Position numbers and translations under genes: made by a program. A stretch of DNA of 64,000 bases from Sphingosinicella sp. BN140058 (lineage in GTDB: Bacteria; Pseudomonadota; Alphaproteobacteria; Sphingomonadales; Sphingomonadaceae). The DNA lies in NCBI RefSeq assembly GCF_004135585.1, contig NZ_CP035501.1:4659501-4723500 (forward strand), read 5' to 3'. Positions 13,105-35,277 of this stretch are shown here, in pieces. Below the pieces are notes generated by a model. The model did not search any database and was not told where the DNA came from. It saw only the letters and a program-made list of their open reading frames with translations. The stretch's first letter is position 1, and the number at the start of each line of letters is the position of its first letter.

Positions 13105-13131
13105 ATCGTATAATATATTTGACATACGATA
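13105..13131. promoter_or_regulatory. GntR-regulon operator and promoter upstream of the second TonB receptor
   Basis: ATCGTATAATAT (13105-13116) and ATACGATA (13124-13131) are two arms of the palindrome also found at 21617, 29370 and 35248. Between them lies TTGACA (13119-13124), a good -35 element for the receptor gene. A bound repressor would cover the promoter. Confidence 0.6.
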
Positions 13132-13182
13132 GTCATTCATGATCCATGTCTCCCATACCCAGAGAACGACAAGGGGAAGCAC

Positions 13183-16146
13183 ATGGCGTATCGGAACCGC
13201 ACTCGCTTGCTGCATAGATCCTGTGCAGCAATCGCCCTCATCGCCGCCGCGTCGGGCGCTGAGGCCCAAACTGTGGGGGCGGCCGATGCCGATCCTTCCG
13301 CTGACGCAACCACAGCGTCGCTCTCGAGCGCGGCGGAGGCAGCTCCCGGGGAAAATATCGTCGTCACCGGCACGCGCCTTCAGCGCCCCGGCCTCACCAG
13401 CAACAGTCCGATCACGGCCGTCGATGCCGGCGAGATCCGGCTGCAGGGGGCGACCAACATCGAGAACGTGATCAACCGATTGCCGCAGGTCACGCCCGAT
13501 GCGAACGAGAACGTCTCGAACGGCTCCGACGGCACTGCCAAGATCAACCTGCGCAATCTGGGCAGCAACCGGAACCTCATTCTGGTGAACGGGCAGCGGC
13601 TGCTGCCGATCCAGGCGACGGACGTGAATCTGATCCCCGCCGCGCTCGTCAAACGGATCGACCTCGTCACCGGCGGTGCGTCTGCGGTCTATGGTTCCGA
13701 TGCCGTCTCCGGCGTCGTCAACTTCATCATGATCGACGATCTGAACGGCGCCAAGCTCGACGTCCAATACGGTTTCTCCGCGCACCACAACACCAACGAT
13801 TTCGCCCGCGATATCGTCAGCGCCAACGGCTATTCGAATGCGCTCAACTCTCCCGTCGACGGGCAGAAGTTCGAAGCCACGCTGGCGCTCGGCGCGAATT
13901 TCGCGGATAATCGCGGCAACGTCACCGCCTATTTCGGCTATCGCGACGTCAAGCCGATCGTCCAGGCGAACCGAGACGTTTCCGCTTGCGCCTTCGACCC
14001 GGCGGGCGAGGGCAATTCGACGCTGACCTGCGGCGGATCGAGCAACAACCCCTTTGGCCTGTTCCAGCCGCTGACCGGACCCAATGCCGGTCTGCGCTTC
14101 AACAACACGCGTGACGGCGAGCGCAGCTGGGTGCCGTACGACAGCAGCTTCCGGTACAACACGGCGCCGCTCAACTACTTCCAGCGTTCGGACAAACGCT
14201 ACGTCGCCGGCGCGTTCGCCCATTACGAGGTGACGCCGGCGGCAGAAGTCTATGGCAGCTTCATGTACATGGACGATCACACATTCTCGCAGGTCGCCCC
14301 GTCCGCCCTGTTCCAGGGCACCACCTTCACGATCAACTGCAACAATCCCTATCTCAGCCAGCAGCAGGGGCAGGCCCTGTGCGGCGGCGATTCCGGGACG
14401 TCGGCGACGCAGGACCTGTTCATCGGCTATCGTCCAGTCGCGGGCAATGCCAAGCCGCGCCGCGACGATCTTCGCCACACGGACTTCAGGGTGACCGGCG
14501 GCCTGCGCGGCGAGATTGCGGAGGGCATACGCTACGACGTGAATGGACTGTTCTCGTCCGTGCTGTTCAACGAGAATTATCAGAACGACATCGATCCGGC
14601 GGCGGCCAATCGCGGCCTGCAGGTGGTGAACGTCAACGGTGTGCCCACCTGCACCTCCGTGATCGATGGCACCGACCCCGATTGCGTGCCGCTCGATGTC
14701 TTCCGCTACAACGGAATCAGCGACGAGGCCTTCGACTACATCTACGCCCCCACCTTCACCCGCGGGCTCGACAAGGAACTGGTCGTCAGCGGCACCGTCA
14801 CGGCCGATCTGACGTCCTATGGAATCAAGAGCCCTTGGTCGGACGAGGGGATCGGCGTGGTGCTCGGCGTCGAGCATCGCCGCGAAAGCCTGAAGTTCGA
14901 GGCGGATGCGTTGGCTCAGCAGAAGGGGACGCAGGAATCGCAGGGCAAGTTCGACGTCACGGAAATGTTCACAGAAGTCAGGCTGCCGATCGCCTCCGGC
15001 CGTCCGTTCCTGGAAACGCTTGCGCTGACCGGCGGCTACCGCCTCTCCGACTACAGCTCGATGGAAAAGAAGATATCGACCTACAAGCTCGAGTTCGAAT
15101 ATGCGCCGGTCAAGGACATCCGCTTCCGCGCCAGCTACAATCGGGCGATCCGGGCACCGAACATTTCCGAGCTGTTCGCGCCCCAGCAGATCGGCAACGT
15201 CTCGGCCCAGGATCCCTGCTCGGGGCCGAATCCGACGGCGACGCTTGCCCAATGTCAGCTGACCGGGGTTACGCAGGCGCAATTCGGCCGTATTCCGGAA
15301 TGCCCGAGCGAGGTCTGCAGTGCCCAGGGCGGCGGCAATCCCGGGCTGCGGCCCGAGGAAGCGGATACCTATACCGCCGGCATCGTGCTTGCGCCGCGCT
15401 TCCTGCCGCGGTTCAACCTCTCGGTCGATTATTTCAACATCAAGGTGAAGGACTATATCAGCTCGGTTCCCGCCTCGCTGATCATCAGCCAGTGCTTCGC
15501 CACCGGCGACCCGTTTTTCTGCGGTCTGTTCACCCGCGATCCGCGTTCGGGGGTGCTGTTCGGCGAAGCGGGTTACGTCGAATCGACGACCCAGAATACC
15601 GGTTCGCTCAAGACATCGGGTATCGACATCGGCGCGAACTGGTCGACCAAGATCGCCGACAAGGTCGCCGTCGACGTGTCCTTCGTCGGTACCTGGCTCA
15701 ACGAATTGCTCAACGAGCCGCTGCCGGGCCTTGGCGCCTATGACTGCAAGGGCCGGTTCGGACCGACGTGCGGCCAGCCGACGCCGGAATGGCGGCATCA
15801 GGCGCGCATCACGCTTTCGGATGCCAATCGGATTGGCTCGGTGTCGCTCAACTGGCGCTATATCGGCGGGACCAAGCTCACCAACAATACCGACGATCCG
15901 TTTCTGACCGGGCCTTCCTACGTCATCAACAGCAAGATCAAGGCCTATAGCTACTTCGATCTCGCGGCTTCGGTGGAGGTGAAGGAGGGCATCGCCTTCC
16001 GGTTCGGAGTCAACAATCTGTTCGACAAGGACCCGCCGGTGATAGCCCAGGGGCTGCTCAGCGCGTTCGGCAACGGCAACACCTATCCGGGCGTCTACGA
16101 CATTGCCGGCAGAAGCTTCTTCGCGGGCCTGTCCGCTGCCTTCTGA
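13183..16146 (+). CDS. TonB-dependent receptor of the hydroxyproline/arabinoside regulon
   Basis: 987 residues with GGGGAAG upstream of the ATG. A signal peptide (about 1-29, ending GAEA) is followed by an Ala-rich linker, the TonB-box-like ENIVVTGTR, a plug domain (about 60-180; INLRNLGSNRNLILVNGQRL and GGASAVYGSDAVSGVVNF) and a beta-barrel ending in Phe (AGLSAAF). The plug type is that of sphingomonad receptors for oligopeptides and other organic ligands. It has a regulon operator upstream, and peptidase, arabinofuranosidase and hydroxyproline genes downstream. I infer import of Hyp-rich (glyco)peptides; the ligand has not been shown. Confidence 0.92.
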   Translation: MAYRNRTRLLHRSCAAIALIAAASGAEAQTVGAADADPSADATTASLSSAAEAAPGENIVVTGTRLQRPGLTSNSPITAVDAGEIRLQGATNIENVINRLPQVTPDANENVSNGSDGTAKINLRNLGSNRNLILVNGQRLLPIQATDVNLIPAALVKRIDLVTGGASAVYGSDAVSGVVNFIMIDDLNGAKLDVQYGFSAHHNTNDFARDIVSANGYSNALNSPVDGQKFEATLALGANFADNRGNVTAYFGYRDVKPIVQANRDVSACAFDPAGEGNSTLTCGGSSNNPFGLFQPLTGPNAGLRFNNTRDGERSWVPYDSSFRYNTAPLNYFQRSDKRYVAGAFAHYEVTPAAEVYGSFMYMDDHTFSQVAPSALFQGTTFTINCNNPYLSQQQGQALCGGDSGTSATQDLFIGYRPVAGNAKPRRDDLRHTDFRVTGGLRGEIAEGIRYDVNGLFSSVLFNENYQNDIDPAAANRGLQVVNVNGVPTCTSVIDGTDPDCVPLDVFRYNGISDEAFDYIYAPTFTRGLDKELVVSGTVTADLTSYGIKSPWSDEGIGVVLGVEHRRESLKFEADALAQQKGTQESQGKFDVTEMFTEVRLPIASGRPFLETLALTGGYRLSDYSSMEKKISTYKLEFEYAPVKDIRFRASYNRAIRAPNISELFAPQQIGNVSAQDPCSGPNPTATLAQCQLTGVTQAQFGRIPECPSEVCSAQGGGNPGLRPEEADTYTAGIVLAPRFLPRFNLSVDYFNIKVKDYISSVPASLIISQCFATGDPFFCGLFTRDPRSGVLFGEAGYVESTTQNTGSLKTSGIDIGANWSTKIADKVAVDVSFVGTWLNELLNEPLPGLGAYDCKGRFGPTCGQPTPEWRHQARITLSDANRIGSVSLNWRYIGGTKLTNNTDDPFLTGPSYVINSKIKAYSYFDLAASVEVKEGIAFRFGVNNLFDKDPPVIAQGLLSAFGNGNTYPGVYDIAGRSFFAGLSAAF

Positions 16147-16214: not shown

Positions 16215-16812
16215 ATGAACCCGCGCTCTCCGCTTCTGGCCGCATTTGCTCTCCTGGTGAGCGCGGCAGCCCCGTCCAAACAGCCCGACCGCGCCGCCGT
16301 CGATCGCTCGGTTCACCTTCGTGAGGATCGGCGCTGGCTGACCCGCGATATTGCCGACAACGTGGTTTGGGACGGACGACGGCAAGCGCTTCGTCTATCG
16401 AAAGACGATCGCGGGCGGGTTCGCCTTCGTTGCGGTCGATCCGGTTACCCTTCAGGAAATCGTCGCCCTTCGACGCCGGTCGGCTGGCGGCGGCGCTCGG
16501 TACGGTGACAGGCGGGATCAGCTGGAACGCGCAGTGGCTCGGCTGGCCGGTCGATCAGAGCTATCTCGATGCGTCGGGAGTCGTGCATGCGGACAAGTTG
16601 CAGGGGCGGTTGCTGATGATCGTCGGCGAGCAGGACAGCAACGTCGATCCCGCCTCCACCCTCCAAGTCGTCGATGCATTGATCAAAGCGGGGAAGGACT
16701 TCGAGCTGCTCGTCGTTCCGGGCGGGAGCATAGCGTCGGCCGATCGAGCGGACCGATCGATTATGTCCAGCGCCGCCAATTCGATTTCTTCACCCGACCG
16801 CTCGGAAAATAG
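16215..16812 (+). pseudogene. decayed S9 prolyl oligopeptidase/DPP IV-like peptidase
   Basis: The pieces match only the two ends of an exported S9 peptidase of over 700 residues. The N-terminus (MNPRSPLLAAFALLVSAAA, then [15 protein letters not shown]) shifts frame near 16368 into [20 protein letters not shown], shifts again near 16455 into [14 protein letters not shown], and jumps directly to [19 protein letters not shown] and [17 protein letters not shown], the C-terminal hydrolase edge with the catalytic Asp. A further shift near 16730 leads to the [11 protein letters not shown] end. Most of the propeller and the nucleophile Ser are gone. It was probably a proline-specific peptidase of this locus. 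Confidence 0.8.
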
Positions 16813-16903
16813 GCGCGGATGCCGCGACCGGCACCGCCGCAGCGGCAGCGCCGGCGCCCAGGACGAAACGGCGGTCGAACCCCGCTCTGCGGTCCGCCGT
16901 CAC
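16790..16903 (-). pseudogene. truncated Tat-exported protein, N-terminal stub
   Basis: A GTG overlaps the stop of the DUF885 gene (GTGA), as in a coupled operon. The 37-codon frame reads [18 protein letters not shown] followed by [10 protein letters not shown], a twin-arginine signal peptide, then stops in the remains of the S9 peptidase. The body of the protein is missing, evidently removed by the deletion that joined the two remnants. Its function cannot be told. Confidence 0.55.
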
Positions 16904-18696
16904 GATTGCGGCCAGGGTGCCGGGTTGCGGCCGCCTGCTGCGATGTATTCGTCCAGCACGCGCTCCAGGGTCGGCAGTGGCACCGACCCGAGCTGAAGGA
17001 TCACGTCGTGGAAGATGCGCTGATCGAACTTGGTGCCGAGCGCCTTTTCCGCCTCGGCGCGCTGACGGCGGATCTGCAGTTCGCCGAGCTTGTAGGCGAG
17101 CGCCTGCGCCGGCCATGCGATGTAGCGATCGACCTCGGTGGTGATCTCATGCTCCGAGAGGGCGGTGTTGTCCCTGAGGTAATCGATCGCGCGCTGTCGG
17201 CTCCACCCAAATTGGTGAATGCCGGTGTCGATCACCAGTCGCGCCGCCCGCCACATCTCGTAGGTCTCGCGGCCGAACTCGTCATAGGGCGTCTCGTACA
17301 TGCCGAGCTTGGTGCCGAGCCATTCCATGTACAGGGCCCACCCTTCGCCATAGCCGGAGAAGCCCGCCGCCTTGCGGAAGTCCGGGCGCGCAGGGGCTTC
17401 GAGCTCGAGGGCCGCCTGAAAGCTGTGGCCCGGCGTGCCTTCGTGGAGGGCGAGCGCGGTCAACGTGTAGAGCGGCCTGACCGGCAGGTTGTAGGTGTTG
17501 AATAGGCAGGCTTCGAGGCCGCCCCGGCCGCCCGTATAGATCGGAGCGAGTGCCGGCGGTACCGGCAGGATGCCGTGGCGGAAACGCGGGATCGTGCCCA
17601 CGATGCCCTTCAGCCGGTAATCGGCGCCTTTGACCGCATAGGCGGCCTTCGCCAGCAATTCTTTCGGCGTGCGCGCATAGAAGCGTGGATCGCTGCGCAG
17701 GAAGGCGAGGAACTCCGGCATGCTGCCCTCGAAGCCCGACGCTCGCCGGGTGGCCTCCATGTCGGCACGGATGCGGGCGACTTCCTTAAGGCCGATGGCG
17801 TGGATCTGCTCGGCGGTAAGATCGAGGGTGGTGAACTTGCGGATCAGCGCCTGGTAATAAGCCTTCCCGCCGGGCAGCGAGGTCGCAGCGATATCCTCTC
17901 GCGCCCTCGGCATGTACTCGGTGCGCAGAAAGGCCAGCAGCTTCCGATAAGCCGGAATGACGCGTTCCCGGATCGCGGTTTCGGCTTCGGCGCAGATGCG
18001 AGCGCGATCGGACTCGGCCATGTCTTCCGGCATGGCGGCGATGGCAGCCCAGTAGGGATTGACCTCTCCGGGCTGGAGGTAGGGTTCGGCCGATTTGTCC
18101 CGTCCGGCCGTCGCGACTCGAGGCACGGTGAAGCCGCGCTTCAATCCGGCCCGCATGTTGGCGATCTGATCGTCGAAGTAGCGCGGAATATCGTTCAGCC
18201 GGCCGATATAACGGCGATACTGGTCTGCCGTCTCGAAGCCGTCCCTCGGCGTGTGGCTCGTCCAGAAGAAGGTGTCGGCGTTGAACGGTGCCTCATAACT
18301 TTTATACTCAGTATCGGTGACATTGCCTTCGATCGTCGCCCGGAGCACCTCGGCGTTGATCCGTTCCTCCCGCGACAATGCTGCAACGTCGATCCCATCC
18401 AGTTCCCGAAGCGCCGCTCGCCAGTAAGCAAGTCGTGTCGCCTGGCTGGCGGCGTCGACGCGCGGCAGATGATCCTCATTGTTGCCACGTTCACCGCCAA
18501 TCGGGACGTGCCCGAATTCGCGTTGTCGCCACGCCCATTCGCGTTCGTAGAGTGCGCGCAGTCGGGCGTCGGCCGTGGCTGCGGTGGATAGGATCGGCAC
18601 TTGGGCGTGCGCAGTTGCCACTCCAAGACAGAGGACGATCGCGAGAGCGGAGGCGGCACGGCATGTGCTCCGAGCCGCGCGTTCAGTGTCAATCAT
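16900..18696 (-). CDS. exported DUF885 protein, putative metallopeptidase
   Basis: 598 residues with a signal peptide (about 1-31, ending AHA) and AGGAGG in front of the ATG. The DUF885 hallmark HEGTPGH is at 418-424, followed by [20 protein letters not shown] and [21 protein letters not shown]. These His/Glu-rich blocks have the look of a zinc peptidase active site, and the family is widely guessed to be peptidases. It is downstream of the DUF5695-like gene in the same direction (45 bp) and upstream of a truncated Tat gene. Its paralogue at 25078 is in the arabinofuranosidase operon, so cleavage of Hyp/Pro-rich peptides is the likely task. Confidence 0.85.
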
Positions 18697-18741: not shown

Positions 18742-21462
18742 TCATTGCGGGGTGAGTACCAGGCGGGTGGTCCTTGCGCCGAGCGGAACGGTATAGGCGC
18801 CGCGCTCCTGGCGGCCGCGATCCGGGCGGTAATGCGGACCCGCCGCGGTCGTCCTCTCGATCACCAGGCGCGCCGTCGGAGTCGCGGCGTTTGCCGGATC
18901 AAGGCTTAGTTCGATCGTGCCGGTTGCGGGCGTGTAGGCGGCCGAGGCAATCTTGCCGGCTTCGAGGGTGAGCCAGGCGCCGACCGGAGCGATGAAGATC
19001 CGACTCCGCGCACCGTCTTTCGGCGCAATCATGATTTTCCTGCCTTGCTCCAGCGCAGTGCCGCCGAAGCCGATCCAGCCAAAGGTCGGATGATCGACCA
19101 AATAGGTGGCGGCCGCATAAACGTGGCCGAAATAGCCCATGCCGTAGTCGCCGCTATAGGGATCCCAGTCCATCCGATCGGGCCAGGAATGGAAACCGGC
19201 CGACGAGAAGCCCTCCCGGTCGACATTGGTGATGCCGCCCATCAGCCCACCGTAGGCGACGCGGAGCAGATGGAGATCGGACGGATCGGCCCGAAACGCG
19301 TCGAACAAGGGGATGGCGTTGAGCGTCGAGCCATAATGATGGATCTGACGTTCGATACGCGGATACTTCCCTGCGTAGAGGAAGTCCCAGTAGCGACGTG
19401 CATTGCCGTTATAGCCCCAGTTCGGCAAGCTCGGATCATATCCCAGGATCACCTCCCGAGTGGTGTCGGCCTGGTGCTGCCAGCCGAAGTACCGCATCCA
19501 TGCATAGACTTCCGGCTGTCCGGTGGAATCCCACGCCATCTCGCTGCCGAACGGATAGCGCAGCGTTCGCCAGTGCTCGGCGCGGCGCCGCATCAGTTGC
19601 TCCATTTCCGCGGCTTGGGCGGCAAGCCCTTCGCGTTTCAGATCTTTCAGGATGTCGACGAAGACGTCGCCTTCCATTTGGCCGAACTGGGCATAATGCG
19701 GCGCATCGCGCATCATCGCGACGCTCGTCTGGAACGCGTGCTCCAGATACCAGCGCCAATCGTGGTGGCGGACCAACCCGTGATGGTTGCGCGCGAGGCG
19801 GTAGAGAACCCAGTGACCGGCGGCGACGTGCGGGTAATTGTAGGAGCGGCCGAGATCGTCGGCCTGCTCCTTTTTCCACGAGGCCCAGCTGGTCCAATCC
19901 CGATCCTTGTCGTAGACGCCGGGGAACCTCATTGGGTCGTAGTAGAACAGGCTTTTCCTGACGCCGCCGGCATGGGGTCCCTCCGCAATCTGGAGCTTGC
20001 CGAGGATGGTTTCGTCGATCAGGCGTTCCAGCTTGGCGATCTCGGCCGCATTCGGGTTGTCGAGCTGCTTCATCACCGCGGCCAGCCAGCTGCCTCCGCC
20101 GCCCTCGTCACTCATTCCGGCGATCCAGACGCGCTGATCCTGGGTGACGATGCGGCTGGCCTCCCGATCATAGGTGAGGATGGCGGGGGCGCGGCCGAAC
20201 GGATCGCGCGGGTCGTCGAACCATTGCCGGGTCGTCGCGAACCGGCCGAGATCGGCGTGTAGCGCCTCGAGCGGCTTGGTGATGAAATAGTGGAGGGTGC
20301 CGACGCTACCGTCCGCATAAGAGATGGTGAGTCGGGCACGGCCCCATCCACTGCTCTTGATGGCATAACGCTGCCAGCCGTCGACGCTGCCGGACGCGGT
20401 CGCCGTGAGCGAACCGGCTGGATGGCTTTCGATCCGGGCCACCTTGCTCGAACTCTTGAGGAACAGCAGGCCCGACTGGTCGGTCGGCAGGACGTAGCCC
20501 GGAATGCCGACGGCGACCGGGCGGCTCTGATCCGCCAGTGTCTGTTCGATCGCACGGATCGCCGGTGCCTGAACGAAGCGGATGCCGATCGTGCGGCTCT
20601 CTCCCGGCGCCAGCGTGAAGCCGGTCGGCACGTTCCATTGCTCGCCCGCGCCTTTCCATTCGCGATCGGCAAAGCCCTTGCTGGCGACCAGCCAGTCGTA
20701 AAAGCCCTCCGATGTCTGCGCACGCGGCGAGCGGTCGTTGAACACTGCCTTTGGCGCTTCCTTGGCCGTGGCGATCGGCACGTACGCCTCGAGCGGAGTG
20801 CCTTTCTCCGGGATTACGAGCAGAGCCGGGCCCTTGCCGTTCAAGCGGGTGACCTGAAGATAGCCGGAGTCCATCCCCACATACGGATCGACGAAGACCG
20901 CTTCGGCATGCGCCTCTTCCAGAGTTCGATCGGTGATGATGTTGTCGAACACCATCGGCATGCCGAGCGCCCCGACTTCGACCGGTTCGCTGCCGCGGTT
21001 GGAAAGGGTGAAGCGAAGCGCAAGTACGCCGCTCTCGTCCAACCAGCGGCGCTCGACCGTCAGCGGGACATCATCGCCCATCGAGGCCGTGATATCTGCG
21101 GCCGCCAGGACGTAGCGATTCCCTTCAAGCCTATGGACTGGCCGCCTTTGATGTGCGGAGGAGAAATCCCGCCAACGGCCGCCGGCGGTGCGCGCGCGCA
21201 GATGAAGGTCGCCGATGTGGACGTAACCGTCACCCGTGCGCTCGGCGCTGCGCCCGCTGGGCACGAAATCGAACGCGGTCTCGGCGGCAGGAGAGAGGCG
21301 GGCGAGGGTTCCCGTCCCGGCATCAAGCGCGACCTCAAACGCGCCCACCCGGCGGCTTGCGCTGGTGGCCGCGCTTGCCGAGGTAATTGCCGCCGCAACG
21401 ACCCCGACCGGCGCGGCGACAATGAGCAGCGCCGTAGCCGTGAACCAGCGTGACCCACGCAT
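18742..21462 (-). CDS. large exported DUF5695-like protein, possible glycoside hydrolase
   Basis: 906 residues from ATG 21462, which has GGAG nine bases upstream (another ATG is at 21477). A signal peptide (about 1-31) is followed by a beta-rich N-terminal half and a helical C-terminal half with Trp/Tyr/His-rich blocks: SYNYPHVAAGHWVLYRLA, NARRYWDFLYAGKYPRIE, HHYGSTLNAIPLFDAFRA and MDWDPYSGDYGMGYFGH. This looks like an (alpha/alpha)6-toroid carbohydrate-active fold and resembles, from memory, DUF5695. It heads an operon with a DUF885 peptidase and is divergent from the arabinofuranosidase gene, with regulon operators between. Removal of another sugar from the same glycopeptide is a fair guess. 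No catalytic residue can be named. Confidence 0.7.
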   Translation of the reverse strand: MRGSRWFTATALLIVAAPVGVVAAAITSASAATSASRRVGAFEVALDAGTGTLARLSPAAETAFDFVPSGRSAERTGDGYVHIGDLHLRARTAGGRWRDFSSAHQRRPVHRLEGNRYVLAAADITASMGDDVPLTVERRWLDESGVLALRFTLSNRGSEPVEVGALGMPMVFDNIITDRTLEEAHAEAVFVDPYVGMDSGYLQVTRLNGKGPALLVIPEKGTPLEAYVPIATAKEAPKAVFNDRSPRAQTSEGFYDWLVASKGFADREWKGAGEQWNVPTGFTLAPGESRTIGIRFVQAPAIRAIEQTLADQSRPVAVGIPGYVLPTDQSGLLFLKSSSKVARIESHPAGSLTATASGSVDGWQRYAIKSSGWGRARLTISYADGSVGTLHYFITKPLEALHADLGRFATTRQWFDDPRDPFGRAPAILTYDREASRIVTQDQRVWIAGMSDEGGGGSWLAAVMKQLDNPNAAEIAKLERLIDETILGKLQIAEGPHAGGVRKSLFYYDPMRFPGVYDKDRDWTSWASWKKEQADDLGRSYNYPHVAAGHWVLYRLARNHHGLVRHHDWRWYLEHAFQTSVAMMRDAPHYAQFGQMEGDVFVDILKDLKREGLAAQAAEMEQLMRRRAEHWRTLRYPFGSEMAWDSTGQPEVYAWMRYFGWQHQADTTREVILGYDPSLPNWGYNGNARRYWDFLYAGKYPRIERQIHHYGSTLNAIPLFDAFRADPSDLHLLRVAYGGLMGGITNVDREGFSSAGFHSWPDRMDWDPYSGDYGMGYFGHVYAAATYLVDHPTFGWIGFGGTALEQGRKIMIAPKDGARSRIFIAPVGAWLTLEAGKIASAAYTPATGTIELSLDPANAATPTARLVIERTTAAGPHYRPDRGRQERGAYTVPLGARTTRLVLTPQ

Positions 21463-21547: not shown

Positions 21548-21564
21548 ATTATATCGTATATTAT
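21548..21564 (-). promoter_or_regulatory. promoter and operator of the DUF5695-like operon
   Basis: ATATCGTATATTAT (21551-21564) is a copy of the regulon operator. On the minus strand TATAAT (21553-21548) overlaps it and is a consensus -10 element about 85 bp before the start codon. The -35 element is not clear. Confidence 0.5.
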
Positions 21565-21589: not shown

Positions 21590-21630
21590 TTGACCGTCGC
21601 ATCCTAGTTCTGTAATATCGTATACGGTAT
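21590..21630 (+). promoter_or_regulatory. promoter and operator of the arabinofuranosidase operon
   Basis: TTGACC (21590-21595), a 17-base spacer and TAATAT (21613-21618) make a near-consensus sigma-70 promoter. The operator ATCGTATACGGTAT (21617-21630) overlaps the end of the -10 and the expected transcription start, which is the position of a repressor site. The core GTATAC is typical of FCD-type GntR regulators. Confidence 0.7.
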
Positions 21631-28107: not shown

Positions 28108-29339
28108 ATCGTTCTCGTCCTTTCGAAACGCTCCACAGCAAACGGCGTCGCATCGATCGGGGTCGCGGCACCGCGGATCAGCGCGGCGACGATCTCGGCC
28201 GTGACCGGCGCCAAGGTGAGGCCGAGGTGCTGATGGCCGAAAGCATAAAACAGATTCTGCACACGGCGCGAGCGGCCGATTGCGGGAAGGTAATCGGGCA
28301 GGGTCGGTCGTGCGCCTAGCCAGCGCGCGAATGGTGCGGCGAGCGGGAGCCCCAGCGCCGCGACATGTGCTTCCAGCCGCCGCCACTTGCGGGGATCCGG
28401 CGGCGCATCGACACGTCCGAACTCGACGAAGCTGGCTGCCTGCACGCAGTCGGCATAACCGGTGACGATCATCGAGCGATCCTCGAACACGATCGGAGGC
28501 AGGTGCGAGGGCCAGCGATCGGCGCTTGCGCGGATGTGGTAGCCGCGCTCCGCAATCAGTGGCACGGCATGTCCGGCGGCGGCCATGAGGCGACGCGAGC
28601 CCGTGCCCGCCGAGACCAGCACCAGGTCGGCTGGGTGAGCGTCGACCACTGCGCGGCCGTTCTCCACACGAAGGAACGCCTGGGCGCGGACGATCGTACC
28701 ACCCGCGGCGGTCAGCGCCGCTTCGAGCGCATCGGCCAGCTGACTGAGATCGGTGATCTGCCCGCTTCCCCGAAACTGTATTGCGTCGGCGACACGTCCT
28801 TTCGTCATTGCGTCGATGTCGCGGAGGTCACCGCCGGCAACGGGCTCGATCCGCGCCGTGCCGATGTCCGCCGCTTCCCAGGCAGCCCGGCCGGCGGCAC
28901 CGCTCGCGGCGGTTTCCCAAGCGACGATGTGCCCGTCGCAGCGCAGCAGATCGGGACGGCCGACGGCGTCGGACAATCGCCGCCATCCGGGTACCGCATC
29001 CCCAAGAAGCGCGGCGAGCGCGTCACGTCCGACTTTGAAGCGGCCGGGGGTCGACGCGGCGAGCATCCGCACGCCGAAAGGAAGCCACTCGCGCACCATG
29101 GACGGCGGCAAGGAGAGAGCACCGCCCCTGAAGAACAGTCGTCTGGGGAATGCGCGAAACGTCGCAGCGGAGGCGAGCGGCGCAACCTGCTCGACCGCAA
29201 TGTGACCTGCATTCCCCCATGATGCGGCATTGCGCATCGGCGAAGGTTCGAGCACCTTCACCGAGCGGCCTTGCTGGGCGAGGGTGACCGCCGCGGCGAG
29301 TCCGATCACACCTCCGCCGACGATCAGAACATCAGTCAC
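28104..29339 (-). CDS. FAD-dependent D-amino-acid (D-hydroxyproline) dehydrogenase
   Basis: 411 residues of the DAO fold. The FAD-binding dinucleotide motif is at the N-terminus (VLIVGGGVIGLAAAVTLAQQ), and ASWGNAGHIA and the C-terminal FGHQHLGLTLAP are typical of bacterial D-amino-acid/D-hydroxyproline dehydrogenases. In bacterial hydroxyproline catabolism this enzyme oxidises cis-4-hydroxy-D-proline, made by the epimerase, to delta-1-pyrroline-4-hydroxy-2-carboxylate. Here it is divergent from the HypD-like and epimerase genes with a regulon operator between, and coupled to an M24 prolidase. Assignment to D-Hyp rests on this setting. Confidence 0.85.
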   Translation of the reverse strand: MTDVLIVGGGVIGLAAAVTLAQQGRSVKVLEPSPMRNAASWGNAGHIAVEQVAPLASAATFRAFPRRLFFRGGALSLPPSMVREWLPFGVRMLAASTPGRFKVGRDALAALLGDAVPGWRRLSDAVGRPDLLRCDGHIVAWETAASGAAGRAAWEAADIGTARIEPVAGGDLRDIDAMTKGRVADAIQFRGSGQITDLSQLADALEAALTAAGGTIVRAQAFLRVENGRAVVDAHPADLVLVSAGTGSRRLMAAAGHAVPLIAERGYHIRASADRWPSHLPPIVFEDRSMIVTGYADCVQAASFVEFGRVDAPPDPRKWRRLEAHVAALGLPLAAPFARWLGARPTLPDYLPAIGRSRRVQNLFYAFGHQHLGLTLAPVTAEIVAALIRGAATPIDATPFAVERFERTRTI

Positions 29340-29352: not shown

Positions 29353-29387
29353 TTGCACTGCGCAATTCTATATCGTATACCGTATAA
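29353..29387. promoter_or_regulatory. divergent promoter/operator between the D-Hyp dehydrogenase and HypD-like genes
   Basis: TATATCGTATACCGTATA (29369-29386) is a copy of the regulon operator. Read on the minus strand it gives ATACGGTATACGATAT, which matches the minus-strand reading of the 21615 site at all but one position. TTGCAC (29353-29358) with TATACC 17 bases on is a possible promoter for the rightward genes. The gap between the two start codons is only 63 bp, so one bound regulator would act on both. Confidence 0.65.
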
Positions 29388-29402: not shown

Positions 29403-30332
29403 ATGAACGAACAGATGGCCATCGGATGGAAGGGCGTGTTCCCGGCAGTTACAACGCAGTTGCACGAGGATCTTACGATAGATCTCGAGAATACGCAGCG
29501 GGTGGTCGACGATCTCATCCGTGATGGTGTCACCGGGATCATCGCCCTCGGCACCGTCGGTGAGAACAATTCGCTGACCTACGAAGAGAAGGTTTCGACC
29601 CTCGCCGCCATCGTCGAAGTTGTCGCCGGACGGGTGCCGGTTGTGACCGGCTGTTCCGAATACGACCTCCGTCGCGCCGCACGCTACGCCCGGGCAGCCG
29701 AGACGGTGGGGGCGGACGGGCTGATGCTGCTGCCGCCGATGGTCTACGTTCCCAAGCGCAACGAGCTGGTCTCTCACTTCAAGGGCGTCGCCCAGGCGAC
29801 GACGCTTCCGATCATGCTCTACAACAATCCTCCGGCCTATCGGACGACGATCGATGCGGAAGTGCTCGATGCGCTGACCGAGGTCGAGAACATCGTTGCA
29901 GTCAAGGAATCGGCGCCCGATACCCGCCGCTTCACCGACTTTCGCAACCGGTTCGGCAATCGCTACATATTGTTCGCCGGTCTCGACGATGTCGCGCTCG
30001 AAGGGCTTTATTTGGGCGCACAGGGTTGGGTGTCCGGTCTCACCAACGCCTTTCCACGGGAGTCGGTCGAACTCGTTGCGGCCTTCGAGAGGGGCGACCA
30101 TGCGAAGGCGCTGGAGATCTATCGCTGGTTTATGCCGCTTCTGCATCTCGACGCGGAACATGATCTCGTTCAGGCGATCAAGCTTGCCGAGCAGGTGATG
30201 GGCCGTGGTTCGGAACGGGTGCTGCCGCCGCGACTGACTCTGGAGGGCGCCCGGCGGGCCGAGATCATCGCCATGGTCGAAAAGGCTGCCGCAACGCGTC
30301 CGCAGCTCGCCAACACCGCTCAGGCGGCCTGA
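29403..30332 (+). CDS. DapA-family deaminase, probable pyrroline-4-hydroxy-2-carboxylate deaminase
   Basis: 309 residues of the DHDPS/NAL superfamily with AAGGA before the ATG. The Schiff-base lysine is Lys168 (IVAVKES) and the catalytic tyrosine is Tyr140 (IMLYNNPPAY); the GTVGENNSLTYEEK block replaces the GTTGE loop. In hydroxyproline clusters this family member deaminates and dehydrates delta-1-pyrroline-4-hydroxy-2-carboxylate to 2-oxoglutarate semialdehyde. First gene of a four-gene operon with the epimerase, regulator and permease. The semialdehyde dehydrogenase needed for the last step is not in the window. Confidence 0.88.
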   Translation: MNEQMAIGWKGVFPAVTTQLHEDLTIDLENTQRVVDDLIRDGVTGIIALGTVGENNSLTYEEKVSTLAAIVEVVAGRVPVVTGCSEYDLRRAARYARAAETVGADGLMLLPPMVYVPKRNELVSHFKGVAQATTLPIMLYNNPPAYRTTIDAEVLDALTEVENIVAVKESAPDTRRFTDFRNRFGNRYILFAGLDDVALEGLYLGAQGWVSGLTNAFPRESVELVAAFERGDHAKALEIYRWFMPLLHLDAEHDLVQAIKLAEQVMGRGSERVLPPRLTLEGARRAEIIAMVEKAAATRPQLANTAQAA

Positions 30333-30344: not shown

Positions 30345-31343
30345 ATGCGCCACACCTTCTTCTGCATCGACGGCCACACGGCGGGCAATCCGGTACGGCT
30401 GGTCGCTGGCGGCGCGCCGTTGCTGAAAGGAGCGTCGATGTCGGAACGGCGCCAGGACTTCCTCGCTCGTTTCGACTGGATTCGCACCGGTCTGTGCTTC
30501 GAGCCACGCGGCCATGACATGATGTCCGGAGGGTTCCTTTATCCTCCGACGGATGCTGCAAACGATGTCGGCATTCTGTTCATAGAGACGTCGGGGTGCC
30601 TGCCGATGTGCGGCCATGGCACGATCGGAATGGTGACCTTCGGGATCGAGCACGGCCTGATCCAACCCGCCATGCCGAGCCGACTTCGGGTCGAGGTGCC
30701 GGCCGGGTTGCTCGAAATCGCCTATGCGCGGGAAGGGGACCGGGTCACCTCGGTGCGCATCACCAACGTCGCCTCCTACATCGCGGCGCGCGGGATCACG
30801 GTGGATGTGGAGGGGATCGGGCCGCTCAGCATCGATGTCGCTTATGGCGGCAACTTCTACGCCATCGTCGAGCCGCAAGGGGCGTATGAGGGGCTCGACG
30901 CGATGGGTGCCGCAAGGCTCGTCGAGCTCAGCGGCCGCGTCCGTCAGGCCGTGCAGGCCAAGTTCGAACCCGTTCACCCGCTCGATCCGACGATCCGCGG
31001 CGTCAGTCATGTCCTGTGGGCGGATGTCCCGCGCTGGGACGGTGCCGACGGCCGCAATGCGGTCTTCTACGGCGACAAGGCGATAGACCGAAGCCCGTGC
31101 GGTACCGGCACGTCGGCGCGGCTCGCCCATCTCGCGGGCACCGGACGGCTCCAGGTCGGGGAGCGGTTCGTGCACGAAAGCTACATCGGCAGCCGGTTCA
31201 TCGGACGGGTCGAGCAGGAGACGAAGCTCGGCGACCAGTCCGCGATCGTCCCGTCCATCGAGGGCTCTGCGGTGGCAACCGGGTTCAACACGATCTGGAT
31301 TGATCGCGCCGATCCTTTCTGGGAAGGTTTTCAGGTCAAGTGA
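30345..31343 (+). CDS. 4-hydroxyproline 2-epimerase (proline racemase family)
   Basis: 332 residues. Both acid/base cysteines of the racemase/epimerase type are present: Cys89 in LPMCGHGTIG and Cys252 in DRSPCGTGTSARLA. That excludes the trans-3-hydroxyproline dehydratase branch, in which the second Cys is a Thr. It converts trans-4-hydroxy-L-proline to cis-4-hydroxy-D-proline, the first step of Hyp catabolism. It lies 12 bp after the HypD-like gene and before the GntR regulator. True proline racemases also carry both cysteines, but the neighbouring D-Hyp dehydrogenase and HypD-like genes favour the Hyp epimerase. Confidence 0.9.
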   Translation: MRHTFFCIDGHTAGNPVRLVAGGAPLLKGASMSERRQDFLARFDWIRTGLCFEPRGHDMMSGGFLYPPTDAANDVGILFIETSGCLPMCGHGTIGMVTFGIEHGLIQPAMPSRLRVEVPAGLLEIAYAREGDRVTSVRITNVASYIAARGITVDVEGIGPLSIDVAYGGNFYAIVEPQGAYEGLDAMGAARLVELSGRVRQAVQAKFEPVHPLDPTIRGVSHVLWADVPRWDGADGRNAVFYGDKAIDRSPCGTGTSARLAHLAGTGRLQVGERFVHESYIGSRFIGRVEQETKLGDQSAIVPSIEGSAVATGFNTIWIDRADPFWEGFQVK

Positions 31344-31401: not shown

Positions 31402-32064
31402 ATGAGCATCGTGGTCCGAACCCTGTCCGAGCAGATCTTCGAGATCATCCGGGAACGAATCGTGCTCGGCAAACTTCCCGATCAACTGCCGATCCGCCAG
31501 GATGCGCTAGCCAACGAGCTCGGCGTCAGCAAGATTCCGCTCCGCGAGGCGTTGGCGCGCCTTGAGCAGGAAGGCCTGCTCGTCAGCCAGGCCAATCGCG
31601 GCTATTTCGTCCGGCCGATGTCGGCGGAATCCGCCGAAGAGATATTCGAGCTTCGGCTGAGTCTGGAGCCGCAGGCGGCAGGGCGGGGAGCGTTGCTTGC
31701 CGACGACGTCGGCCGGGCGGCGGCGGTCGAGGCTTATGAGGCGCTCGACAGTGCGGCGCTCGATGCCGGTGCCGAAGTGGCGGTGCGCAACCGCGCCTTC
31801 CACACCGCTCTGGTTCGTCCCGGCGGGCGGCTGCTCACGACCCAATTGGTCGAGCGCTTGGCGATCCTCTCGGAGCGCTACGTGGTGACGCACCTGGAGC
31901 CGGCCGGCCGCGAGGACCGCGCGCACCTGGAGCACAAGCAACTGATCGAGACCTGGCTCGCGCGCGATGCAGAAGGAATTGCTGCGCTGCTGACCGCCCA
32001 TATTCGCGGCACGCTCGAGGATCTGAGAGCCCAGCTGGCAAATTCGGCGGGCGAGGGTAGCTAG
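31402..32064 (+). CDS. GntR/FCD family regulator, likely repressor of the whole locus
   Basis: 220 residues from ATG 31402, which has CAGGAG upstream. The winged HTH (about 8-70) reads RIVLGKLPDQLPIRQDAL and LGVSKIPLREALARLEQEGL, a GntR domain. The FCD effector domain follows with spaced histidines (NRAFHTAL, HLEHKQLIE, LTAHIRGTLE) that usually bind a metal and an organic acid ligand. FCD regulators favour GTATAC-centred palindromes, exactly the sequence repeated upstream of the genes in this locus. It sits inside the Hyp operon. I infer it is a repressor released by a Hyp-pathway intermediate. Confidence 0.88.
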   Translation: MSIVVRTLSEQIFEIIRERIVLGKLPDQLPIRQDALANELGVSKIPLREALARLEQEGLLVSQANRGYFVRPMSAESAEEIFELRLSLEPQAAGRGALLADDVGRAAAVEAYEALDSAALDAGAEVAVRNRAFHTALVRPGGRLLTTQLVERLAILSERYVVTHLEPAGREDRAHLEHKQLIETWLARDAEGIAALLTAHIRGTLEDLRAQLANSAGEGS

Positions 32065-32083: not shown

Positions 32084-33508
32084 ATGTTCGGACCGCGTAA
32101 ATCGATCGACACAGCCGGCAGTCAAGGTGCCGGACATCGTCTCGCCAAGACTCTCAGCTGGCCGCACCTGATCGCGCTTGGGGTTGGCGCGATTGTCGGC
32201 ACCGGCATCTACACGCTGACGGGGGTGGGCGCGGAACGTGCCGGTCCCGCCGTGATCCTGGCCTTCGCCATCGCCGGCGCGGTGTGCGCGTGCGCGGCAC
32301 TCGCTTACGCGGAAATGGCCACCATGGTTCCGGCCGCCGGCAGCGCCTATACGTTCAGCTATGTCGCCATGGGTGAGGCGATCGCCTGGGTGATAGGCTG
32401 GAGCCTGGTGCTCGAATATTCGCTCGCCTGTTCGACGGTGGCGGTCGGATGGTCTGGCTATCTGGTCGGTTGGCTACAGTCGGCTGGTCTCGATCTACCG
32501 CAAGCTTTGCTGGTCGGCCCCCATGCCGGCGGCATCATTAACCTTCCGGCCGTCGTCGTCGCGCTGTCGATCATGGGTCTGTTGATCGCCGGCACGCGGG
32601 AGAGCGCTACCCTCAACATCATTCTCGTCGTCATCAAGCTTGTCGCGCTCAGCCTGTTCGTGATCTTCGCGCTGCCCGCCTTTCAAAGCGACAATCTTCA
32701 GCCGTTCATGCCTTATGGCTTCGGCAGCACCGAGGTGATGGGCGAGAAGAAGGGCGTGATGGCCGCGGCGGCGATCGTCTTCTTCGCCTTCTACGGCTTC
32801 GATGCCGTTGCGACGTCGGCGGAGGAAGCCAAGCAACCAGGTCGGGATCTGACCATCGGCATCATCGGATCGATGGCAGCCTGCACGATCATCTACATGC
32901 TGGTGGCGATTTCGGCGATCGGAGCGCTGCCGTTCACCGCGCTCGCCAATTCTCCCGAGCCGCTCGCTCTGGTCCTGCGGACGCTCGATCATCCCGTTGC
33001 CGCACATCTTATCGCCTTGGCCGCGGTGATCGCGCTGCCGTCGGTCATCCTGGTGATGATGTACGGCCAAAGCCGGATCTTCTTCGTGATGGCGCGTGAC
33101 GGACTGTTGCCTCGCCGGCTCGCGGCGGTGAGCCCGCGCACTGGCGCTCCGACCCTGATCACCCTGCTGACCGGCATCGTGGTCGCCGCCGTCGCCGGCT
33201 TCTTCCGTCTCGATGAAATCGCCGAACTCGCCAATGCCGGCACCCTCGTCGCCTTCGTCGCGGTGGCCGCGAGCATGATGATCCTCAGGCGCACGGCGCC
33301 AGGTGCGGCGCGTCTGTTCCGCTGCCCCCAACCATATCTGGTCGGCACCGCCGCCATCCTCGGTTGCCTGTATCTGTTCGTCAGCCTCCCTGAGACGACG
33401 ATCGTCCGCTTCCTGATCTGGAACCTGGTTGGGCTCGTGGTCTATTACGCCTACGGGCGCCGCCGCAGCGCGCTGCGCGACCCGCAACCTGTCGCTGCCG
33501 CGGAATAG
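32084..33508 (+). CDS. APC family amino-acid permease
   Basis: 474 residues with about 12 hydrophobic segments. The first helix carries ALGVGAIVGTGIYTLTG, the APC/CAT substrate-binding signature, and GFDAVATSAEEAKQPGRD is the usual loop after helix 6. It is the last gene of the operon holding the HypD-like enzyme, epimerase and GntR regulator, so it probably imports hydroxyproline, proline or a small Hyp peptide across the inner membrane. The stop codon is followed by a hairpin shared with the convergent DUF885-like gene. Confidence 0.9.
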   Translation: MFGPRKSIDTAGSQGAGHRLAKTLSWPHLIALGVGAIVGTGIYTLTGVGAERAGPAVILAFAIAGAVCACAALAYAEMATMVPAAGSAYTFSYVAMGEAIAWVIGWSLVLEYSLACSTVAVGWSGYLVGWLQSAGLDLPQALLVGPHAGGIINLPAVVVALSIMGLLIAGTRESATLNIILVVIKLVALSLFVIFALPAFQSDNLQPFMPYGFGSTEVMGEKKGVMAAAAIVFFAFYGFDAVATSAEEAKQPGRDLTIGIIGSMAACTIIYMLVAISAIGALPFTALANSPEPLALVLRTLDHPVAAHLIALAAVIALPSVILVMMYGQSRIFFVMARDGLLPRRLAAVSPRTGAPTLITLLTGIVVAAVAGFFRLDEIAELANAGTLVAFVAVAASMMILRRTAPGAARLFRCPQPYLVGTAAILGCLYLFVSLPETTIVRFLIWNLVGLVVYYAYGRRRSALRDPQPVAAAE

Positions 33509-33517: not shown

Positions 33518-33537
33518 GCACGACCGGCGCGTCGTGC
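33518..33537. terminator. hairpin between convergent permease and DUF885-like genes
   Basis: GCACGAC and GTCGTGC form a 7-bp stem with a 6-base loop in the 35-bp gap between the two stop codons. There is no T tract. Confidence 0.45.
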
Positions 33538-33543
33538 GCCTGC

Positions 33544-35220
33544 TCAGTTCGGGAGCATCTCGTCGGCGATGAGCGGGATCGGGATCATTCCCGCCTTGTT
33601 GAACGAATCCAGAAAAGCCCGCAGGACGAATGGCTTTCCGGCGCGTTCGGAGCGGTGTGCTGCGTCGGCGATCAGCCTTTCGAGCATCAGCTTGCCAGTG
33701 ATGTAGCTGGTGCCGTAACCTGGCTGGCGAAGATAGAGAAGCTGTTCGAAGGCCGTCAGGTCGTCGCCGGCCTTTGCCCAGCCGCGCGGCGTCCAATCGG
33801 CATGGAAGCGGCCTGCCTGCTCGAGGCTCCATTCATTCGCCTGTACGTGCAATGAGGCGAGCCCGCGCGCGGCGCGATTGGCAAGCATGATCCAGACGAG
33901 TTCGCGCGCACGCGGATTGTCGTCGTACAGGCCCGCCTGCATCATCAGTTCCTCGAAGGCGGTGGCGAAACCTTCGGCGCGCCCATCCCAGATATTGGAG
34001 AGCGAGGCACCCCGGCGGATCGGGCTCGGATGCGGCTCGTCGCGCATCCGGGCGAGGTCGATCCAATGGTAATCGTGGCTGAACAGCAGCATCGGCTCGC
34101 GATGCGTGACCTGTGCGAAGAAGGCGCGTTGCGGCTCCGGCACGAAATGGCCGATCTGCGGTGCGATGGCAGTCCTCAGATAGGGCTTGTCGGGAATTAT
34201 CTGCTCTCGGACGAGGAAGGCGACGAACGCGTCGAGACGTCTATTCGACAGCGCCTGAAAGGTCGCCTCATCGGTAACGGGCGCGAGTGGCGGCAGATCC
34301 CGGTTGCGATGCTCTTCAAGCTTCAGCGCGGCATGCGCGCGTTCCAGCTCGCGGCGGAGCAGAGCCATTTCCTCGTTCCAGTCATAGGGGCTGAAATGGA
34401 CATTGCGCTGATACCAGCTATATTCGTCGCGGCCGACGCCGGACGGGCCGGTTTTCCCTGGTGCTACCGTCTCGACCCACTCGATGAAGCCATCAGTCGC
34501 CGTGCGCGCCGCATTGATCGCCTGTCGGAGCGCACCGCCCGCACCGGTCATGTCGGCCTTTCGGCTGCCATCCAGCTTGGATATGATCAGCGTTCCCGCC
34601 TCGAGTTGCGTCAGTGCTTCGGCCTGGTCGCGCAGCATTCGAGGGCTGTAGCGCCAGAGATCTCCGGCATTGGAATCCTTCAAATTCGCTCGAGCCTGCG
34701 CGAGCAGCGCAGGGATTGCACGAAGCTGTGCCGTGAGCGTCGCCTGATCCGCTCGGGAAAGCGGAAATTCATACGCGTGAAGTGCGATTTCCGGTTGTGC
34801 AGCCGGTCCTTCGCGAAGAGGCACGTCGGTGCGGCTCGCCCAGACCTGGACGTAGAAAGCAGGGTCCCGCGCCCAGGGGCGAAGCACCCGCAGCTCGAAA
34901 TCCAGGCCGTTCATCTCCGCCTCGACAAGTCTGTAGTCGTTGCGCTGCTCGGCATTCCAGCCTGCGGTCCGAATGGAGGCCAGGCGTTGCTTCCATCCCG
35001 GGAGGGCAGCCGCCTTGCGTGCCATTGCGGCAGCCGAATAGTCCGGAACCCCGCCGTGTATCTCCGGAGCCTGAAAGACACGCCAGGCTTCGAACAATGA
35101 GGCGAGGTCCGCGTAATCGGATTTCCCGTCTTGCCCACTCGGATGTGGCGTGTCGGGGCGTGCGTATCCCGGAACACAGAGTGCGAGCGCACATGCTGCG
35201 GCGATGAAGGACGCTCGCAC
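33544..35220 (-). CDS. exported DUF885-like protein lacking the HE..PGH motif
   Basis: 558 residues from GTG 35220 (CAGGAG upstream); an in-frame ATG at 35289 would place the operator and promoter inside the coding region and is unlikely. Signal peptide at about 1-21. The overall plan follows DUF885: EGFATAFEELMMQAGLY and NEWSLEQAGRFHADWTP occupy the places of the EGWALY and second-helix blocks of the two other copies. The HExxPGH motif is absent; FSHDYHWIDLARMRDEPH stands in that region. It may bind rather than cut peptides, or use other residues. It has a perfect regulon operator at its promoter. Confidence 0.75.
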   Translation of the reverse strand: MRASFIAAACALALCVPGYARPDTPHPSGQDGKSDYADLASLFEAWRVFQAPEIHGGVPDYSAAAMARKAAALPGWKQRLASIRTAGWNAEQRNDYRLVEAEMNGLDFELRVLRPWARDPAFYVQVWASRTDVPLREGPAAQPEIALHAYEFPLSRADQATLTAQLRAIPALLAQARANLKDSNAGDLWRYSPRMLRDQAEALTQLEAGTLIISKLDGSRKADMTGAGGALRQAINAARTATDGFIEWVETVAPGKTGPSGVGRDEYSWYQRNVHFSPYDWNEEMALLRRELERAHAALKLEEHRNRDLPPLAPVTDEATFQALSNRRLDAFVAFLVREQIIPDKPYLRTAIAPQIGHFVPEPQRAFFAQVTHREPMLLFSHDYHWIDLARMRDEPHPSPIRRGASLSNIWDGRAEGFATAFEELMMQAGLYDDNPRARELVWIMLANRAARGLASLHVQANEWSLEQAGRFHADWTPRGWAKAGDDLTAFEQLLYLRQPGYGTSYITGKLMLERLIADAAHRSERAGKPFVLRAFLDSFNKAGMIPIPLIADEMLPN

Positions 35221-35247
35221 ACCGGTTCTCCTGATCAGTGAGCCAAA

Positions 35248-35277
35248 ATCGTATACGATGTAGCTCGCCCTGGTCAA
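35248..35277 (-). promoter_or_regulatory. promoter with perfect GntR operator for the third DUF885-like gene
   Basis: The perfect 12-bp palindrome ATCGTATACGAT lies at 35248-35259. On the minus strand TTGACC (35277-35272), a 16-base spacer and TATACG (35255-35250) form a promoter whose -10 is inside the operator. The start codon is about 30 bp further on. Confidence 0.7.

What the first reader, a model, noticed from the sequence alone, without database searches (positions are those of the whole stretch)
13105..35277. Candidate regulon for plant hydroxyproline-rich, beta-L-arabinosylated glycopeptides
Within 22 kb the sequence shows an outer-membrane receptor, a Tat-exported GH127/GH146-type enzyme with its Cys-Cys/Glu-x-Cys zinc centre, an unknown exported DUF5695-like protein, three DUF885 proteins, a prolidase, D-amino-acid dehydrogenase, 4-Hyp epimerase with both catalytic Cys, a HypD-like deaminase, a GntR regulator and an amino-acid permease, with a shared operator at several promoters. 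Known: extensins carry beta-L-arabinofuranose chains on Hyp, GH127/146 enzymes remove beta-L-Araf, and the epimerase/dehydrogenase/deaminase trio degrades Hyp. Inference: one system handles sugar and peptide parts together, a 'HRGP utilisation locus'. I know of no described locus joining these steps.
Basis: partly seen in the sequence, partly recalled or inferred. Interest (0 to 1): 0.9.

Follow-up and report, generated by a model that had tools for sequence, protein, structure and literature searches.

The report
Plant hydroxyproline-glycoprotein utilisation regulon
A bacterium of the Sphingomonas family carries one apparently co-regulated gene set that looks built to strip arabinose off plant hydroxyproline-rich wall proteins, chop up the protein and burn the hydroxyproline, and the same set recurs in many related bacteria.

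Summary
Window 13105-35259 holds six putative transcription units (receptor; DUF5695-DUF885; GH146-Ldh2-DUF885; dehydrogenase-prolidase; deaminase-epimerase-GntR-permease; divergent DUF885) with five copies of a palindrome near ATCGTATACGAT. ATNGTATACNRT occurs at four places in the 6.07-Mb genome, three of them here. Of 298 Sphingomonadaceae genomes, 25 have this GH146 at 55% identity or more; all 25 have the Hyp epimerase, 21 within 15 kb. The palindrome is conserved upstream of Hyp operons, GH146 and receptor, and of several GH146 genes away from Hyp genes. The GH146 lies in a clade sister to Xanthomonas XeHypBA1, which frees arabinose from Araf-beta-Hyp (PMC6085000). Relatives add GH43 and DPP-IV-type genes; Granulicella couples a different Hyp module to the same set. 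Precedents: HypR regulons reaching up to collagenases (PMC5343134) and HRGP deglycosylation in Xanthomonas; this looks like a plant-glycoprotein variant joining both. Substrate, GntR-operator binding and DUF5695/DUF885 functions are inferred.

The parts
13105..13116 (.). operator 1, ATCGTATAATAT, upstream of the TonB receptor
   Evidence: (10 of 12 positions)
13183..16146 (+). TonB-dependent outer-membrane receptor (987 aa), candidate importer of Hyp-glycopeptides
   Evidence: Pfam plug and barrel; operator at -78 by the script's reckoning; relatives at 53-60% in six Hyp loci
16900..18696 (-). DUF885 protein a, HExxPGHxxQ motif (candidate metallopeptidase), apparent signal peptide
18742..21462 (-). 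DUF5695 protein (906 aa), apparent signal peptide; model closest to PL27 lyase BACCELL_00875
21553..21564 (.). operator 2, ATCGTATATTAT, next to the DUF5695-DUF885a unit
21617..21628 (.). operator 3, ATCGTATACGGT, at the GH146 promoter
21648..24050 (+). GH146-type beta-L-arabinofuranosidase, putative Tat export, Zn site E351/C353/C421/C422
24047..25081 (+). Ldh_2-family oxidoreductase (best PDB hit 1WTJ, delta1-piperideine-2-carboxylate reductase), 4-bp overlaps on both sides
25078..26853 (+). DUF885 protein b, HExxPGHxxQ motif, apparent signal peptide
26926..28107 (-). M24 prolidase-type peptidase (393 aa), 4-bp overlap with the upstream dehydrogenase gene
28104..29339 (-). DAO-family dehydrogenase, proposed cis-4-hydroxy-D-proline dehydrogenase
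   Evidence: substrate inferred from context
29372..29383 (.). operator 4, ATCGTATACCGT, between the divergent Hyp units
29403..30332 (+). DHDPS-family protein, proposed 1-pyrroline-4-hydroxy-2-carboxylate deaminase
   Evidence: function inferred from context
30345..31343 (+). 4-hydroxyproline 2-epimerase, Cys89/Cys252
31402..32064 (+). GntR/FCD regulator, proposed HypR-like repressor of the regulon
   Evidence: operator binding inferred
32084..33508 (+). APC-family amino-acid permease
33544..35220 (-). divergent DUF885-like protein c with apparent signal peptide, without the HExxPGHxxQ motif
35248..35259 (.). operator 5, perfect palindrome ATCGTATACGAT, before DUF885c

Best explanation
The locus is one regulon for eating plant hydroxyproline-rich glycoproteins (extensins, solanaceous lectins, arabinogalactan proteins or their fragments). 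Proposed working: exported GH146 removes beta-L-arabinofuranose from hydroxyproline, with DUF5695 acting on other parts of the glycan. Exported DUF885 proteins and the M24 prolidase break the bared peptide. The TonB receptor and the permease carry fragments and Hyp inward. Epimerase, D-Hyp dehydrogenase and deaminase turn trans-4-hydroxy-L-proline into alpha-ketoglutarate semialdehyde, finished by an aldehyde dehydrogenase encoded elsewhere. The GntR protein represses the six transcription units through ATCGTATACGAT until Hyp or a derivative appears. Shown here: gene content, shared and conserved operator, conserved neighbourhood, GH146 clade. Inferred: activities, order of steps, unit borders, the regulator-operator pairing, substrate.
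For: Co-occurrence: 25 of 25 family genomes with GH146 (55% or more) have the epimerase, 21 within 15 kb; Fisher p 2.5e-26, not corrected for kinship. DUF5695: 13 of 13 genomes have both, 9 within 20 kb of the epimerase. Control: of 6 genomes with a GH127/146 match below 55% only, the 5 with the 47-50% paralogue lack the epimerase; the sixth (G029, 40%) has it. Operator of 9/12 or more upstream, edge-cut and duplicate rows removed (raw counts): deaminase 43 of 44, dehydrogenase 31 of 34, GH146 34 of 38, receptor 9 of 9, DUF5695 12 of 21; inner or other genes: epimerase 3 of 46, permease 3 of 36, prolidase 1 of 31, GH43 1 of 14; shuffle null 6%, Markov null 12%. Sites of 10/12 or more: 110 in 95,163 bp of promoter windows, 31 in 1,217,124 bp elsewhere. 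The site persists before GH146 in regions without Hyp genes, e.g. G294g, G297g, L113, L117, L146. GH146 is 49% identical to a 791-aa X. euvesicatoria protein matching XeHypBA1 in species, family and length; their clades join at 96/92. Relatives add GH43, DPP-IV-type, Ldh2 genes. Granulicella and a Chitinophagaceae MAG pair GH146 with other Hyp-type genes.
Against: No activity or induction data. 15 of 40 family genomes with the epimerase have no such GH146. Class-wide 38 of 240 genomes have the epimerase and 3 of 240 a GH146 match. Duganella copies and some others lack the operator, G083 has none of 9/12 at GH146 or DUF5695, and 9 of 21 DUF5695 promoters fall short. GH43, needed for the alpha-1,3-Ara cap, is not in the window; best own-genome hit 36%. 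GH121 was not searched for. No araA in the genome, so the arabinose's fate is open. The proposed last-step dehydrogenase (5,526,926) shows no GTATAC-centred site; best 12-mer 10/12. Two of the 25 counted GH146 genes (G057, and the linked copy of G052) carry an in-frame stop. DUF5695 resembles an AGP-acting lyase, not an extensin enzyme.
Confidence: 0.74

Rival explanations
1. The main substrate is arabinogalactan protein or gum rather than extensin-type Hyp-arabinosides: DUF5695 is a PL27-like lyase or a hydrolase on the type II arabinogalactan, GH146 removes beta-Araf decorations on it, and Hyp comes from the AGP backbone.
Against: GH146 here lies in a clade sister to XeHypBA1 (Araf-beta-Hyp), not with Bll3HypBA1, though that row has a very long branch. 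None of the ten recurring-neighbour proteins scanned is a galactanase. Sequence search finds no PL27 link. DUF5695 is in only 13 of the 25 GH146 genomes.
Confidence: 0.2
2. A free-Hyp or collagen-peptide regulon (ordinary HypR type) in which the GH146 is a bystander serving another sugar.
For: HypR regulons with collagenases, proline peptidases and a TonB transporter are described in Alteromonadales (PMC5343134). Hyp genes occur without this GH146 in 15 of 40 family genomes.
Against: The operator is conserved directly upstream of GH146 in 34 of 38 distinct loci and at GH146 genes away from the Hyp operon. GH43 and DPP-IV-type genes recur beside it.
Confidence: 0.06

Closest known systems
HypR (GntR) hydroxyproline regulon of Proteobacteria (Leyn et al. 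2016, PMC5343134; passages and HypR section read)
   Same: GntR-type regulator, epimerase/dehydrogenase/deaminase core, upstream peptidases and a TonB receptor drawn in; in Alteromonadales it reaches up to secreted collagenases
   Different: Here the upstream part is a glycan-removing set (GH146, DUF5695, in relatives GH43) fitting plant wall glycoproteins; no collagenase family among the locus genes scanned; orthology of the regulator to S. meliloti HypR not tested
Xanthomonas euvesicatoria XeHypBA1/BA2/AA (PMC6085000; abstract, Discussion and passages read)
   Same: GH146-clade beta-L-arabinofuranosidase 49% identical; a GH43 partner (here only in relatives of the window); a prolyl oligopeptidase gene nearby, reported decayed there as the S9 remnant is in the window
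   Different: The parts read name no Hyp-catabolic genes with it; the BA2-AA operon is controlled by HrpX; GH121 present there, not searched for here; the authors state that X. euvesicatoria cannot use L-arabinose
Bifidobacterium longum HypBA1/HypBA2/HypAA cluster (PMC7263609, start of abstract in the listing; PMC10850190, passages)
   Same: Degrades beta-L-arabino-oligosaccharides of HRGPs
   Different: Sugar part only in what I saw; ABC transporter; GH127 and GH121
PL27 L-rhamnose-alpha-1,4-D-glucuronate lyase BACCELL_00875 (PDB 5NO8/5NOK)
   Different: 12-14% identity, no sequence-profile match; catalytic residues not compared

Membership tests
GH146 | closest sequence relatives are GH146 members rather than GH127 | tested here: met
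   Best PDB match BT0349 (5opj, 466.5 bits) against 74-87 bits for the GH127 chains 3wkw/3wre/4qjy; in one clade with XeHypBA1, called GH146 in PMC10850190
GH146 | Cys3-Glu zinc site | tested here: met
   E351, C353, C421, C422, invariant over 20 rows
GH146 | beta-L-arabinofuranosidase activity | not testable with these tools
   needs an enzyme assay
HypR-type hydroxyproline regulon | GntR regulator linked to epimerase, D-Hyp dehydrogenase and deaminase | tested here: met
HypR-type hydroxyproline regulon | common operator upstream of the Hyp operons, conserved in relatives | tested here: met
HypR-type hydroxyproline regulon | alpha-ketoglutarate semialdehyde dehydrogenase (hypH) in the regulon | tested here: not met
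   none among the locus genes scanned; the homologue of the relatives' aldehyde dehydrogenase lies at 5,526,926 without a GTATAC-centred site, best 12-mer 10/12. Seven relatives' regions do hold an aldehyde dehydrogenase of that cluster
HypR-type hydroxyproline regulon | regulator orthologous to S. meliloti HypR | not tested
   HypR sequence not at hand
4-hydroxyproline 2-epimerase | two catalytic cysteines and equivalog-level score | tested here: met
   Cys89 and Cys252; PRK13971 535.6 bits, cut-off 376
Bacteroidota-type polysaccharide utilisation locus (SusC/SusD pair) | SusD-like lipoprotein beside a SusC-type receptor | tested here: not met
   no SusD domain among the locus genes scanned; the receptor scores 36.9 bits to the SusC model, cut-off 368
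PL27 | fold: beta-sandwich plus (alpha/alpha) barrel as in BACCELL_00875 | tested here: inconclusive
DUF885 (PF05960) | family score and HExxPGHxxQ motif | tested here: met
   proteins a and b; 27 of 27 members of the main DUF885 cluster (the window's two included) carry the motif; protein c scores 87 bits and lacks it

The most novel reading that the evidence does not exclude
This is an example of a glycoprotein utilisation locus: a single regulon that consumes both the sugar and the backbone of plant hydroxyproline-rich glycoproteins. It was assembled at least twice, since Alphaproteobacteria and Acidobacteriota (and perhaps Bacteroidota) couple a GH146/DPP-IV-type module to Hyp modules of different ancestry. 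It contains a carbohydrate-active family not yet described as such (DUF5695, PL27-like fold) and a Hyp/Pro-peptide metallopeptidase family (DUF885).
Probability: 0.4. Interest if true: 0.78.

Novelty: new variant of a known kind. Interest (0 to 1): 0.66.

Why it matters
Hydroxyproline-rich glycoproteins are abundant plant wall polymers that carry nitrogen as well as carbon (general knowledge). A bacterial route that takes both halves, under one switch, would explain how sphingomonads and caulobacters on plants and in soil tap this pool. It would also point to functions for two uncharacterised families (DUF5695, DUF885) and supply a defined operator with which to find further members. If the arabinose is oxidised by the non-phosphorylating route (inferred only; no araA was found), sugar and Hyp would meet at the same intermediate, alpha-ketoglutarate semialdehyde.

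Tried and rejected
Chance or niche clustering: rejected on operator and neighbourhood data. RidA (12505-12960) as a core member: no RidA hit at the reporting cut-offs in the relatives' loci, so left out. GH127 proper: rejected for GH146. PL27 membership by sequence: no match. Operator before the aldehyde dehydrogenase elsewhere in the genome: no GTATAC-centred site found. Whether the relatives' GH43 is the XeHypAA orthologue: not reached (rejected the centre given); only the lengths are similar (524 against 528 aa), and its best PDB matches are beta-xylosidase/alpha-L-arabinofuranosidases. GH121 was not searched for. Spread outside the family: class-wide, 38 of 240 genomes have the epimerase and 3 of 240 a GH146-type match, two of these in the same family, so the coupling is not general in Alphaproteobacteria. 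Caveats on counts: identity cut-offs (70% epimerase, 55% GH146) were set after seeing the lists; each genome search scored only its best candidates; the named set is the best 80 of a larger, capped list; the regions fetched were chosen, not random; the window itself is among the counted rows. In one search some rows were cut at a locus edge or repeated between the two locus sets (the receptor rows L097 and L132 were wrong); one search repeats the count without them.
Full report
What is there. Four-base overlaps link GH146, Ldh2 and DUF885b, and also the dehydrogenase and the prolidase. By orientation and spacing the region divides into six putative transcription units: receptor (+), DUF5695-DUF885a (-), GH146-Ldh2-DUF885b (+), dehydrogenase-prolidase (-), deaminase-epimerase-GntR-permease (+), DUF885c (-). 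The unit borders are inferred.

The operator in the window. Five copies beginning ATCGTATA, most nearly the palindrome ATCGTATACGAT, sit at 13105, 21553, 21617, 29372 and 35248, before each unit or between divergent units. ATCGTATA is expected 0.22 times in the window and found 6 times at 5 places. In the whole genome ATNGTATACNRT occurs at four places: three are in this locus and the fourth, at 3,235,150, lies just upstream of another TonB receptor gene. The looser one-mismatch search also lists six sites with a changed centre (ATCGTAGACGAT or its complement) elsewhere in the genome, not examined further.

The operator in relatives. In 55 regions with an epimerase hit (window included; edge-cut and duplicate rows removed), the best 12-mer in the stretch from 250 bases upstream to 60 bases downstream of the start scores 9 of 12 or more for deaminase 43 of 44, dehydrogenase 31 of 34, GH146 34 of 38, receptor 9 of 9 and DUF5695 12 of 21. 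Genes expected inside operons, or otherwise without a promoter of this kind, score low: epimerase 3 of 46, permease 3 of 36, prolidase 1 of 31, GH43 1 of 14; in between are GntR 12 of 38, DUF885b 7 of 24, DUF885a 5 of 15 and Ldh2 6 of 24. The mononucleotide-shuffle null is 6%; a first-order Markov null gives 12% at 9 or more and 2% at 10 or more. Sites of 10/12 or more number 110 in 95,163 bp of promoter windows and 31 in 1,217,124 bp elsewhere (duplicates not removed). In regions without epimerase or deaminase the site is still present before GH146 (10 or more of 12) in G294g, G297g, G182g, L099, L111, L113, L115, L117, L118, L146 and L150; some of these stretches are short or at contig ends, so Hyp genes may lie beyond. 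Among the GH146-type genes at 51% identity or below in that list only L159 reaches 10, with a site not centred on GTATAC; the Duganella and Acidobacteriota copies do not reach 10. It fails in G083g, where GH146 scores 7 and DUF5695 8. That the neighbouring GntR/FCD protein reads this palindrome is inferred from its place and from the usual GntR half-site (recalled), not tested.

Neighbourhood. Among 298 Sphingomonadaceae genomes, 40 have an epimerase at 70% identity or more, 25 a GH146 at 55% or more and 13 a DUF5695. All 25 and all 13 have the epimerase; 21 of the 25 pairs lie within 15 kb. The other four are G294 and G297 (elsewhere in the genome), G083 (other contig) and G182 (epimerase on a 3.4-kb contig, so distance unknown). 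The 25 genomes carry 15 different genus labels by my count. Of six genomes with only weaker matches, five with the 47-50% paralogue lack the epimerase and one (G029, 40%) has it. Fisher p is 2.5e-26, without correction for kinship. Gene-by-gene comparison of 38 chosen regions of 31 related genomes shows the same set with the order rearranged, plus recurring extras: DPP-IV-type (8 regions), amidohydrolase (8), aldehyde dehydrogenase (7), alpha/beta hydrolase (5), GH43 (4), gamma-glutamyltransferase (4); names rest on one or two members of each cluster. The GH146 alignment brought 80 named loci, the best of a longer, capped list. Of these, 49 have GH146 at 54% or more; 21 of the 49 have the epimerase and 26 the epimerase or deaminase at 45% or more, 16 a GH43 and 23 a DUF5695. 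Of the 31 below 54%, none has the epimerase at that level and one has the deaminase. Organisms with the coupling include Sphingomonas, Novosphingobium, Croceibacterium, an uncultured Caulobacter, Sphingobium SYK-6, Nitrospirillum, Azospirillum, Niveispirillum and Pacificimonas.

Independent assemblies. In Granulicella paludicola (Acidobacteriota, L108) the GH146 (72%), a DUF885, a permease, a GntR/FCD regulator, GH43 and DPP-IV stand beside an epimerase of another subfamily (PRK13970 411 bits, just under its cut-off of 442), two FAD-linked oxidoreductases, a DHDPS protein, an aldehyde dehydrogenase and a second GH127-type gene. Its GH146 promoter lacks the palindrome. A Chitinophagaceae MAG (L171) has two DPP-IV-type genes, GH146 (41%), a D-amino-acid dehydrogenase, a DHDPS protein, a permease and a GH39, but no epimerase hit. 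L140 pairs GH146 (53%) with a trans-3-hydroxyproline dehydratase-like gene (415 bits, cut-off 550).

Literature. Ten searches of the open-licence library. PMC5343134 (passages and the HypR section read) describes HypR regulons that extend to collagenases, proline peptidases and a TonB transporter. PMC6085000 describes HRGP deglycosylation in Xanthomonas. PMC10850190 (passages) describes GH146 enzymes. No paper joining Hyp catabolism to HRGP deglycosylation turned up; DUF5695 is named in one paper, on fungal regulators (listing only). Subscription journals are mostly not held.

Verdict. It is a plant-glycoprotein variant of the HypR kind of regulon, with two uncharacterised families drawn in.

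Noticed in passing
window 16216-16870 (+): Decayed S9/DPP-IV-type peptidase gene, coding similarity spread over frames with stops (Pfam Peptidase_S9 on one piece). DPP-IV-type genes with open frames sit in eight relatives' regions; next to X. euvesicatoria hypAA a prolyl oligopeptidase gene is also reported as a pseudogene (PMC6085000).
   Followed up: partly
genome G000:C1:3235150-3235161 (L192:9150-9161): The only ATNGTATACNRT site outside the locus lies just upstream of another TonB receptor gene (940 aa), which is hardly similar to the window's receptor: a possible distant regulon member.
   Followed up: partly
window 3533-11942: LacI-type regulator (by eye), MFS transporter, TonB receptor and GH97: apparently a separate alpha-glucan-type uptake cluster directly upstream.
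   Followed up: partly
window 12505-12960 (-): RidA-family protein with an apparent signal peptide, divergent from the TonB receptor; not seen at the reporting cut-offs in relatives' Hyp loci.
   Followed up: partly
genome G000:C1 about 4637852-4651190 (L194): Two GH92 mannosidases, a GH43 and two TonB receptors, about 8 to 22 kb before the window begins: possibly a second glycoprotein-glycan cluster.
   Followed up: partly
G175 and G032 regions (L054, L057): A second, distant DUF5695-like protein (25-26% identity) lies between the DUF885b gene and the prolidase gene in two relatives.
   Followed up: no
window 35385-35748 (+): Small ORF that reads by eye like a staphylococcal-nuclease-type domain, next to the locus edge; no family scan made.
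   Followed up: no
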